NCBI GenBank assembly: GCA_021788565.1
Contig: JAJYKO010000331.1
Location: forward strand, 1 to 6,469
Direction: 5' to 3'
Source of the DNA: Chloroflexota bacterium
Lineage (GTDB): Bacteria; Chloroflexota; UBA6077
DNA: 6,469 nt
In this document: positions 4,014 through 4,874 of the stretch, piece by piece
How the letters are laid out: every line of letters starts with the position of its first letter
Position numbering within the stretch: position 1 is the first letter of the stretch
Made by a program: the position numbers and the translations under genes
Notes under the pieces: generated by a model
Seen by the model: only the letters and a program-made list of their open reading frames with translations
The model's database searches: none
What the model was told of the DNA's origin: nothing

Positions 4014-4041
4014 TTGACAGCCACGAGGCTGGTGATATAGT
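4014..4041 (+). promoter_or_regulatory. Promoter of the riboswitch-winged-helix transcript
   Basis: TTGACA (4014-4019), a 16-base spacer and TATAGT (4036-4041) with a TG one base upstream form a strong extended -10 promoter. The start would fall near 4048, about 20-25 bases before the riboswitch core, leaving a leader of nearly 300 bases. The spacer contains the inverted repeat CAGCC-acga-GGCTG (4018-4031), a possible operator. Confidence 0.78.
4018..4031. promoter_or_regulatory. Inverted repeat in the promoter spacer, possible operator
   Basis: CAGCC-acga-GGCTG is a perfect 5-bp dyad with a 4-base centre, between and touching the -35 and -10 boxes. A protein bound there would block RNA polymerase. 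The downstream winged-helix protein is an obvious autoregulation candidate, but no second copy was found, so this is inference. Confidence 0.3.
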
Positions 4042-4065
4042 AGGCTCAAGTAGATAAGAAACACA

Positions 4066-4194
4066 CGTCTGAGGCCGAGTTCCTGTCCTAGGGAGCGGGG
4101 GACCCAAATCGCGGGGCGAATCGCGCGAGTGCGCGTAGGGATGCTCTTTCTTCCCGAGCCCGTCAGCTAACCCCGTAGGCGTAGGAAGAGGACG
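4066..4194 (+). promoter_or_regulatory. ydaO/yuaA-class cyclic di-AMP riboswitch
   Basis: The aptamer is recognisable from conserved blocks in the right order: GCCGAG (4074-4079), GAGCGGGGGACCCA (4093-4106), GGGGCGAATC (4113-4122), GTAGGGAT (4135-4142), CCCGTCAGCTAACCCCG (4159-4175) and AGGCGTA (4177-4183). The expected helices form: CGGGG 4096-4100 with CCCCG 4171-4175; GGGC 4114-4117 with GCCC 4158-4161; GGGA 4138-4141 with TCCC 4152-4155; and a variable hairpin CGCGC-GAGT-GCGCG (4122-4135). The closing GCC/GGC helix is short, with CGTCT 4066-4070 and GGACG 4190-4194 possibly extending it. This class binds c-di-AMP and usually switches expression off. No U-rich terminator was seen in the next 150 bases, so control of translation is a possibility. 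The boundaries are approximate. Confidence 0.93.
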
Positions 4195-4344
4195 AGTGAG
4201 AACAGATCACCATTGGGCGGCTGGGCACGGTCCGTCGCCGTTCAAGTTCCCCCTCTCCGTTTTCCCGCTTAACGCCGGCAAGGTGCCCTCCAGGAGCTTC
4301 GGCCTGTCTGCTCACTGCTATCGAGCTAGGAGGTGCTCGGTTTC
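4195..4344 (+). other. Leader between riboswitch and winged-helix gene
   Basis: These 150 bases should hold the expression platform. Pairings visible by eye are GGCGGC (4217-4222) with GTCGCC (4234-4239, one G-U); a long-range GGGCAC (4223-4228) with GTGCCC (4283-4288); CCTCC (4287-4291) complementary to the Shine-Dalgarno GGAGG (4329-4333); and the hairpin at 4320-4341. No intrinsic terminator with a U-tract is apparent. A small ORF (4196-4357) runs through it. Confidence 0.45.
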
Positions 4345-4357
4345 ATGCTCAGTCTGA
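4196..4357 (+). CDS. Possible 53-residue leader ORF after the riboswitch
   Basis: A GTG at 4196 begins right after the riboswitch. It is preceded by AGAGGA four bases upstream, with AGGAA just before that. The frame stays open to a TGA at 4355-4357, overlapping the start of the winged-helix gene by 13 bases in another frame. The 53-residue product has no recognisable motif. It is rich in His, Pro, Ser and Arg, with a hydrophobic stretch PFKFPLSVFPL and a Cys/Ser-rich end. It could be a leader peptide coupling riboswitch-controlled translation to the next gene, or a chance open frame in GC-rich DNA. Its Shine-Dalgarno bases AGGAC (4189-4193) are complementary to GTCCT (4085-4089) in the aptamer's 5' region. 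Confidence 0.22.
   Translation: MRTDHHWAAGHGPSPFKFPLSVFPLNAGKVPSRSFGLSAHCYRARRCSVSCSV
4320..4341 (+). promoter_or_regulatory. Hairpin with the winged-helix gene's ribosome binding site in its loop
   Basis: ATCGAGC (4320-4326) pairs with GCTCGGT (4335-4341) over seven base pairs, one of them U-G. This exposes an 8-base loop TAGGAGGT that contains the whole Shine-Dalgarno sequence AGGAGG (4328-4333). The ATG at 4345 is four bases after the stem. The linear spacing of 11 bases is long, and folding would bring the two closer. This decides for ATG 4345 over GTG 4333, which overlaps the Shine-Dalgarno itself. Confidence 0.55.
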
Positions 4358-4761
4358 GACTGGATCCCGATATGGAGCGGTTGCTCGAGCGTGATGTCGA
4401 TGACCTGGCTAAGTACAACATTCTGCGATACCTACACGACAATCCTGAGGTGCGAGGCGACGTCGAATTCTTCGCCGATCGGCTGGGACTGCGATCTGTA
4501 GAGCGAGTCGGCGAGGCACTGGAAGCCCTGACTCGCTGCGGACTGCTGACTAGGCTCCCATCTGACAATAGTCCCGGCGACTGCTATCGGTTGAGCGGGG
4601 ATCCCACGGCCGTGGAAACGGTGGATCGACTCTATCAGCTCAGCTCCACAAGCTTCTATGGAGAGATCGTGGAGCGGCTGGCCGCTCGCTCGCTGCACAG
4701 GGCGCGACGGGCGCAGGCTGCACATGCAGTGCAACCCAGCGGTAACGGAGTCACCCGTTAG
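4345..4761 (+). CDS. Small winged helix-turn-helix protein, function unknown
   Basis: I do not recognise a named family. The 138-residue protein looks like a DNA-binding winged helix. A helix (about 20-32, LAKYNILRYLHDN) is followed by the helix-turn-helix pair DVEFFADRLGLRS (39-51) and VERVGEALEALTRCGLL (52-68). A beta wing comes next, LLTRLPSDNSPGDCYRLS (67-84). This layout resembles MarR/ArsR-type or FaeA-like domains. A further helix (about 88-115) may dimerise, and the tail is Arg/Ala rich (RSLHRARRAQAAHA). No ligand-binding domain, signal or membrane segment is present. The gene follows a c-di-AMP riboswitch on the same transcript, implying control by c-di-AMP. An in-frame GTG at 4333 would add four residues but overlaps the ribosome binding site. 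Confidence 0.8.
   Translation: MLSLRLDPDMERLLERDVDDLAKYNILRYLHDNPEVRGDVEFFADRLGLRSVERVGEALEALTRCGLLTRLPSDNSPGDCYRLSGDPTAVETVDRLYQLSSTSFYGEIVERLAARSLHRARRAQAAHAVQPSGNGVTR
4743..4760 (+). repeat. Small hairpin across the end of the winged-helix gene
   Basis: TAACGG-agtcac-CCGTTA is a perfect 6-bp inverted repeat. It overlaps the last codons and all but the final base of the TAG stop codon at 4759-4761. No U-run follows. It may add to 3'-end structure with the larger repeat downstream. Confidence 0.35.
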
Positions 4762-4794
4762 CAAACCGACCGGTCTTCAGTATTAGGCGTATTC

Positions 4795-4859
4795 ACAAAG
4801 TCGCAACGCCATTCACGGAGGAGGGTTATCCTCTCGGAGTGGCGTTGCGACTACTTTGT
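4795..4859. repeat. 65-base long inverted repeat between winged-helix gene and thiE
   Basis: Arms TCGCAACGCCATTC (4801-4814) and GAGTGGCGTTGCGA (4837-4850) pair over 14 bp with a single G-T. Outside them ACAAAG (4795-4800) and CTTTGT (4854-4859) add six pairs, with three unpaired bases (CTA) on the right arm. Inside, GAGGA (4818-4822) and TCCTC (4829-4833) add five more, leaving the loop GGGTTA. Possible roles are a transcript end for the winged-helix gene (no strong U-tract follows), a processed RNA hairpin, or a small palindromic repeat element. The -35 box of the thiE promoter lies in the right arm. Confidence 0.85.
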
Positions 4860-4874
4860 AGTGGGGCCTATAAT
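4845..4874 (+). promoter_or_regulatory. Promoter of the thiE-pyrophosphatase operon
   Basis: A perfect -10 TATAAT (4869-4874) lies 18 bases after TTGCGA (4845-4850), a 4/6 match to TTGACA that is part of the long inverted repeat. Transcription would start near 4881. The leader of about 70 bases can form two small hairpins (AGCAA-gtaa-TTGCT, 4882-4895; GCTAG...CTAGC, 4900-4918). None of the TPP-riboswitch consensus blocks (CUGAGA, ACCUGAUCUGG-like) is present. Confidence 0.65.

What the first reader, a model, noticed from the sequence alone, without database searches (positions are those of the whole stretch)
4066..4761. c-di-AMP riboswitch in front of a putative DNA-binding protein
The aptamer at 4066-4194 carries nearly all conserved blocks of the ydaO class, and its own strong promoter lies just upstream. 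The first well-supported gene on that transcript encodes a 138-residue winged-helix protein. Known targets of this class are mostly cell-wall hydrolases, potassium and osmolyte transporters and related functions. A transcription factor as the direct target would turn c-di-AMP sensing into a regulatory cascade. The aptamer and gene order are seen; the cascade is inference.
Basis: partly seen in the sequence, partly recalled or inferred. Interest (0 to 1): 0.72.

Follow-up and report, generated by a model that had tools for sequence, protein, structure and literature searches.

The report
c-di-AMP riboswitch controlling a DNA-binding protein
In a group of little-studied bacteria (Chloroflexota), an RNA switch for the messenger molecule c-di-AMP sits in front of a gene for a predicted DNA-binding protein again and again, which suggests that the messenger may act not only on transporters and enzymes but also through a layer of gene regulation.

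Summary
A c-di-AMP (ydaO/yuaA, RF00379) aptamer lies at 4063-4195 (+), 91.3 bits against a cut-off of 38, 21 nt after a sigma-70-like promoter. The next gene, 4345-4761, encodes a 138-residue predicted winged-helix protein. The protein belongs to an unnamed Chloroflexota family; of 10 family loci found in whole genomes (9 among 400 Chloroflexota, 1 among 294 of a second class) 9 have RF00379 directly upstream, at 25-40% protein identity to the window. None of 24 more distant winged-helix loci scanned has one. The fold is MarR/ArsR-like; the helix-turn-helix resembles LexA's weakly. All nine relatives with an aptamer have an intrinsic terminator right after it, as in transcriptional OFF switches. 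The window has none; folding suggests that aptamer formation instead frees a CCUCC stretch that covers the ribosome-binding site (translational OFF switch). Genomes of one class also place c-di-AMP riboswitches before trehalose synthesis, ion transport and c-di-AMP receptor genes. Ligand binding, DNA targets and the cascade remain untested.

The parts
4014..4041 (+). sigma-70-like promoter TTGACA-N16-TATAGT, extended -10 (TG)
   Evidence: 11 of 12 consensus matches; 8 of 10 riboswitch-winged-helix loci (window included; not L107, L201) have a promoter-like site of at least 8 of 12 within 90 nt upstream
4063..4195 (+). c-di-AMP riboswitch aptamer (RF00379)
   Evidence: 91.3 bits, E 4e-21, full length
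4144..4151 (+). pseudoknot strand 1 (CUCUUUCU)
   Evidence: position; complementarity read from the sequence
4183..4190 (+). pseudoknot strand 2 (AGGAAGAG), in the 3' tail of the aptamer
   Evidence: position; complementarity read from the sequence
4196..4344 (+). leader between aptamer and gene; no intrinsic terminator found
4287..4291 (+). CCUCC, candidate anti-Shine-Dalgarno: predicted to pair with the aptamer's 5' part when the aptamer is unfolded and with 4329-4333 when it is folded
   Evidence: pairs with 4329-4333 at probability 0.90-0.92 with the aptamer enforced; in the free fold 4287-4289 pair with 4090-4092 (0.88-0.96) and 4291 with 4085 (0.99)
4327..4334 (+). Shine-Dalgarno region (TAGGAGGT), predicted exposed without and hidden with the folded aptamer
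   Evidence: mean unpaired probability of 4327-4333 0.89 free, 0.20 with the aptamer enforced; 0 of 100 shuffled leaders show a difference of 0.6 or more
4345..4761 (+). 138-residue winged-helix protein, unnamed Chloroflexota family
   Evidence: no Pfam family above its cut-off
4794..4856 (+). long hairpin after the gene, possible end of the transcript (weak T-tract)
   Evidence: -50.1 kcal/mol for 4780-4870, z -8.8, 0 of 200 shuffles as stable; the mir-458 hit there is far below its cut-off; the terminator scan did not flag it

Best explanation
The unit is a c-di-AMP-gated regulator. A promoter at 4014-4041 starts a transcript whose first ~150 nt fold into a ydaO-class aptamer. When c-di-AMP is high the aptamer closes and production of the 138-residue winged-helix protein stops; when it is low the protein is made. 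In nine relatives this happens by an intrinsic terminator directly after the aptamer. In the window, where no terminator was found, the likeliest route is translation: the folded aptamer frees a CCUCC stretch (4287-4291) that pairs with the Shine-Dalgarno sequence. The protein is most likely a DNA-binding repressor or activator of MarR/ArsR-like fold, acting on genes for osmolyte or ion balance. Shown by computation: aptamer, gene order, conservation of the pair in a divergent family, predicted fold, terminators in relatives. Inferred: c-di-AMP binding, OFF direction, translational control in the window, DNA binding, and the target genes.
Against: No binding or expression data. One family member (G047:C75, L129) lacks the riboswitch in 16 kb. 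The translational model rests on one sequence: close homologues' DNA could not be fetched. In it the unconstrained fold is 24-27 kcal/mol more stable than the aptamer-constrained ones (-124.4 against -100.5 and -97.6; ligand and pseudoknot energies not counted), and the SD is hidden also when the pseudoknot tail is left free (0.25). No shared operator: palindrome scores upstream of the family's riboswitches hardly exceed those upstream of other riboswitches (6.4 against 6.1, 10 and 38 loci). No Pfam family is matched above its cut-off by the window's protein. G138, which has two copies, gave no diadenylate cyclase match (a fragmented assembly).
Confidence: 0.72

Rival explanations
1. The riboswitch controls the gene, but the protein is not a transcription factor: its winged helix serves protein or RNA contacts.
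For: No Pfam DNA-binding family passes its cut-off for the window's protein; the recognition-helix region (about residues 52-64) is rather acidic by reading; no neighbouring target gene is conserved.
Against: The fold matches listed are dominated by MarR/ArsR-type regulators; the helix-turn-helix aligns with the LexA DNA-binding domain (Pfam LexA_DNA_bind in 7 of 85 members at E <= 0.01); the C-terminal helix is basic and conserved in the close homologues.
Confidence: 0.2
2. In the window itself the aptamer is uncoupled from the gene (decayed expression platform), although relatives are regulated.
For: The terminator present in 9 of 9 relatives was not found here; the aptamer has a C-G pair where most have U-A next to the GGG/CCC helix.
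Against: The aptamer scores 91 bits and the pseudoknot strands are complementary. The C-G change is compensatory and occurs in other riboswitches of the set (L113; by eye L140, L142, L154, L148, L149, L169). 35 other riboswitches of the 64 compared also lack a strong nearby terminator. The predicted SD toggle exceeds all 100 shuffles.
Confidence: 0.12
3. The riboswitch is an ON switch for the regulator.
For: None direct.
Against: Terminators directly after the aptamer in relatives; [quoted passage not shown]
Confidence: 0.08

Closest known systems
ydaO/kimA c-di-AMP riboswitch of Bacillus subtilis (RF00379)
   Same: Aptamer class and position in the 5' leader; relatives of the window also have the terminator.
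   Different: Target is a predicted DNA-binding protein, not a potassium transporter; no terminator was found in the window.
nlpC c-di-AMP riboswitch of Corynebacterium glutamicum (PMC9960051, passages read)
   Same: Lacks a canonical terminator; proposed translational OFF control.
   Different: Target is a cell-wall peptidase; phylum differs.
guanine riboswitch of nupR in Bacillus thuringiensis (PMC9430930, passages read)
   Same: A riboswitch that controls a transcription factor gene, called rare by its authors.
   Different: Different ligand, aptamer and regulator family; reported there as limited to the Bacillus cereus group, whereas this pair is found in two classes of Chloroflexota.
c-di-AMP-binding transcription factors BusR (PMC5919688, passages) and DarR (PMC5575661, PMC7288161, passages)
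   Same: c-di-AMP changes the output of a DNA-binding protein.
   Different: There the protein binds c-di-AMP itself; here an RNA sensor would set how much protein is made.
MarR/ArsR winged-helix regulators; LexA DNA-binding domain
   Same: Predicted fold and helix-turn-helix.
   Different: No family model passes its cut-off for the window's protein; no LexA peptidase domain, no known effector site.

Membership tests
c-di-AMP riboswitch (RF00379) | covariance-model score above gathering cut-off over the full model | tested here: met
   91.3 bits, cut-off 38, model 1-134
c-di-AMP riboswitch (RF00379) | pseudoknot between the CUCUUU loop and the 3' tail (feature recalled) | tested here: met
   8 complementary pairs, 4144-4151 with 4183-4190 (positions; pairing read from the sequence)
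c-di-AMP riboswitch (RF00379) | position in the 5' leader of a gene on the same strand | tested here: met
   promoter-like site 4014-4041, gene 4345-4761
c-di-AMP riboswitch (RF00379) | binds c-di-AMP | not testable with these tools
   needs in-line probing or calorimetry
transcriptional OFF switch of the ydaO type (mechanism, not the aptamer family) | intrinsic terminator between aptamer and gene | tested here: not met
   none found in the window; present in 9 of 9 relatives with an aptamer
winged-helix DNA-binding regulator, MarR/ArsR-like | winged-helix fold | tested here: met
winged-helix DNA-binding regulator, MarR/ArsR-like | match to a MarR or ArsR family model | tested here: not met
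   window protein: no Pfam family above cut-off, no NCBIfam match; MarR_2 in 1 of 85 members at E 0.008
winged-helix DNA-binding regulator, MarR/ArsR-like | sequence-specific DNA binding | not testable with these tools
   no operator found
LexA | LexA DNA-binding domain plus S24 peptidase domain | tested here: not met
   helix-turn-helix similar (E 4e-4) but no peptidase domain in the 138 residues

The most novel reading that the evidence does not exclude
An RNA-gated transcription-factor family not described before: in at least two classes of Chloroflexota, c-di-AMP acts through riboswitches both directly on osmolyte, ion and c-di-AMP-receptor genes and indirectly on one to three copies per genome of a dedicated winged-helix regulator, so that one second messenger runs a two-layer network, with the expression platform switched from termination to translation in the window's lineage.
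Probability: 0.4. Interest if true: 0.78.

Novelty: new variant of a known kind. Interest (0 to 1): 0.62.

Why it matters
c-di-AMP riboswitches are described as direct switches on transporters and wall hydrolases (PMC9960051, PMC10117811, passages), and riboswitches that control transcription factors are called rare (PMC9430930, passage). Here a second-messenger riboswitch and one regulator family have stayed together over deep divergence. That gives a defined protein family whose regulon can be mapped in vitro, and a way into c-di-AMP biology in a phylum where my two full-text searches found no dedicated study (0 papers; one paper, on KdpD, that mentions Chloroflexota once).

Tried and rejected
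Led nowhere: the window's own genome is not held. A scan of GTDB contigs with the protein alignment confirmed nothing, nor did viral contigs. Plasmid records gave one short Nonomuraea match over the aptamer region. PNPase found relatives at 61% at best, so the host lineage is not represented closely. None of 47 genomes of the class of the best PNPase hit (G001) has a match at E <= 1e-8, and none of 18 genomes named by PNPase loci at E <= 0.01; the tool warns that such empty answers show little. A first phylum search with the close-homologue model found 12 of 400 genomes, with 8 strong loci; the wider model replaced it because it had missed L109.

Considered and rejected: a 53-aa leader ORF (4196-4357; no Pfam match); the mir-458 hit at 4794-4854 (23.8 bits against 59); an autoregulatory palindrome (no enrichment); a conserved target gene next door (none). 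One homologue, P0010, carries a precomputed Pfam label PF25872.1 that my own scan of it did not reproduce; its best match there is LexA_DNA_bind, below cut-off.

Limits: the weaker homologues (E 1e-13 and above) were treated as another family because of the gap in scores; I scanned 24 distinct such loci (about 1.5 kb on each side), not all that one search lists. The expression for the U-A/C-G pair misread several aptamers: it counted U-A 40 and C-G 2 of 64, and further C-G cases were read by eye. For the 62 riboswitches the target was taken as a long ORF downstream, not proved to be the first gene; 8 were not run through Pfam (L143, L144, L146, L149, L151, L161, L163, L164) and 6 gave no match (L113, L116, L120, L156, L158, L160). 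The profile search scored only the 7998 candidates sharing most words. Nelson 2013 and Block 2010 on ydaO targets are not held, so a transcription-factor target may be listed there.

Full report
What is there. The window carries pnp and, recognised by eye, rpsO on the minus strand, a GNAT acetyltransferase, a minus-strand gene of the Polyketide_cyc2 family, then the unit in question, then thiE and the start of a CBS/DRTGG manganese pyrophosphatase. The aptamer is an unambiguous RF00379 match at 4063-4195, 91.3 bits. An 11-of-12 sigma-70-like promoter with an extended -10 ends 21 nt before it. The gene starts at 4345 with a Shine-Dalgarno sequence and ends at 4761. A hairpin at about 4794-4856 (z -8.8 for 4780-4870) follows the gene and may end the transcript, though its T-tract is weak.

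The protein. It matches no Pfam family above its cut-off and no NCBIfam model. A first search gave 35 homologues at 55-88% identity, without a functional name; one is from a 'Chloroflexota bacterium'. A profile search gave 92 among the 7998 candidates scored; where a source gives a readable name it is 'hypothetical protein', and where it names an organism it is a Chloroflexota (Chloroflexi) or Dehalococcoidia/Dehalococcoidales bacterium. The AlphaFold model (pLDDT 84.5) is a winged helix flanked by helices. Its structural neighbours in the PDB lists are mainly MarR- and ArsR-type regulators, and by profile the helix-turn-helix resembles the LexA DNA-binding domain, E 4e-4.

Does the riboswitch travel with the gene? 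In 400 Chloroflexota genomes the extended family model finds nine loci in five genomes at E 1.1e-35 or better, then a gap to 1e-13; in 294 genomes of the class of G010 (a 'Dehalococcoidia bacterium' by its record title) it finds one more such locus, in G418. G010 and G418 are not among the 29 genomes of G138's class, so two classes are involved. RF00379 lies directly upstream on the same strand in nine of these ten: L081, L082, L083, L084, L085, L093, L095, L109 and L201. The exception is G047:C75 (L094/L129), with none in 16 kb. Identity of the nine to the window's protein is 25-40%. Among more distant winged-helix loci none of 24 has the riboswitch: 20, plus L088, L090, L091 and L096 (the other four weak loci are the same places as four). 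Some of those genomes have no RF00379 at all (G208, G135), which softens that control. As a rough estimate of my own, not a call: with nine riboswitches in 3.5 Mb, the most seen, a gene start falls within 500 nt downstream of one by chance less than once in a thousand. The neighbourhoods compared share no other gene family except one match between two loci (L125, L128; L201 was not in that comparison). The link therefore looks old and specific.

Same messenger, same genomes. A diadenylate cyclase domain is found in five of six family-bearing genomes (G138, a fragmented assembly, gave none). In the 29 held genomes of G138's class, 62 RF00379 elements pass the cut-off in 21 genomes. I read downstream ORFs of all 62 (26, 36). 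Eight are the winged-helix family, in G138, G047, G037, G153 and G098. The others with a Pfam identity include trehalose-6-phosphate synthase GT20 (6), trehalose synthase TreT (2), GH57 (2), c-di-AMP receptor PF06153 (5), Mrp/NuoL-like antiporters (3), MFS transporters (4), proteins with 3D or NlpC domains (4), TrkA proteins (2), and single cases of a Na/H exchanger, MscS and an ABC transporter with a CBS domain. In G098 a riboswitch-winged-helix pair stands directly before a riboswitch-GT20 pair, and in G138 a pair is divergent from a riboswitch-GH57 gene. These point to osmolyte and ion balance as the theme; for the regulator's own targets that is inference.

How it switches. In all nine relatives with an aptamer an intrinsic terminator of 10-12 bp with a T-rich tail begins 9-20 nt after it; dinucleotide shuffles of the same leaders gave any terminator-like site (5 bp or more) in 1-22 of 100. 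None was found in the window; in the wider set 28 of 64 riboswitches have a strong terminator nearby and 36, the window included, do not. Partition-function folding of 4063-4380 gives the Shine-Dalgarno region a mean unpaired probability of 0.89 without constraint and 0.20 with the aptamer enforced and the pseudoknot strands kept free of other pairs; over 100 shuffles of the leader the difference averaged -0.26 and never exceeded 0.32. The switching strand is CCUCC at 4287-4291: with the aptamer enforced it pairs with GGAGG at 4329-4333 (probability 0.90-0.92); in the free fold four of its five bases are held by the aptamer's own 5' part, 4085-4092. I therefore favour a translational OFF switch in the window, as proposed for nlpC in C. 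glutamicum (PMC9960051, passages read). The weaknesses: one sequence, unequal energies (-124.4 against -100.5 and -97.6 kcal/mol), and the SD is hidden whether or not the pseudoknot tail is held (0.25 with the tail free).

The aptamer's oddity is a C-G pair where most of the set has U-A beside the GGG/CCC helix. It recurs in L113, and by eye in L140, L142, L154, L148, L149 and L169, so it looks like natural covariation rather than decay. From recalled crystal numbering this U is near the second ligand site; that mapping comes from memory, with only the residue list seen in PMC7288161.

Literature. Full-text searches for ydaO with Chloroflexi (0 papers) and for riboswitch with Chloroflexota and cyclic di-AMP (one paper, on KdpD) found no study of this. 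Searches combining c-di-AMP or ydaO riboswitch with transcription factor, regulator, trehalose or related terms (of 73 and 32 papers only 30 and 15 were listed) showed no title or abstract start that reports a transcription factor behind a c-di-AMP riboswitch. I read passages in six papers and those passages name none. Nelson 2013 and Block 2010 were not held. A passage in PMC9430930 calls riboswitch control of transcription factors rare.

Verdict. The finding is real, more than chance, and conserved. The parts are known kinds; the combination, and its persistence in a family with no name, is new as far as I could check. The regulatory cascade is the likeliest reading but is not shown.

Noticed in passing
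L136, L137, L154, L165, L166 (G145, G193, G169, G217, G130): c-di-AMP riboswitches lie about 10-390 nt before genes for the PII-like c-di-AMP receptor (PF06153, DarA/PstA): an RNA sensor apparently controlling a protein sensor of the same messenger.
   Followed up: partly
L098, L103, L106, L114, L118, L141 (GT20); L110, L138 (TreT); L108, L152 (GH57): c-di-AMP riboswitches repeatedly precede trehalose and related glucan genes in this class, i.e. osmolyte synthesis rather than uptake.
   Followed up: partly
L170 1551-2600 (-), G082:C219: A regulator-like protein with a SorC-type sugar-binding domain (PF04198) and a helix-turn-helix starts about 400 nt after a weaker RF00379 match (56 bits): a possible second kind of transcription-factor target.
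   Followed up: no
L129 7866-8366 (+), G047:C75: The one family member found without a riboswitch; its own promoter and control are unknown.
   Followed up: partly
window 4794-4856: Very stable hairpin (z -8.8) between the gene and thiE, overlapping a promoter-like site (4845-4874); weak T-tract, so terminator or other element.
   Followed up: partly
L148, L149, L169 (G114, G233, G082): c-di-AMP riboswitches with an atypical 3' core (the CAGCTAAC block replaced by other letters) before MFS transporter genes (L148, L169 by Pfam; L149 by eye): a divergent aptamer subgroup.
   Followed up: no
L093 718-852 (-) and 1129-1262 (+), G138:C67: Two divergent c-di-AMP riboswitches 276 nt apart, one for GH57 and one for the winged-helix gene.
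   Followed up: partly
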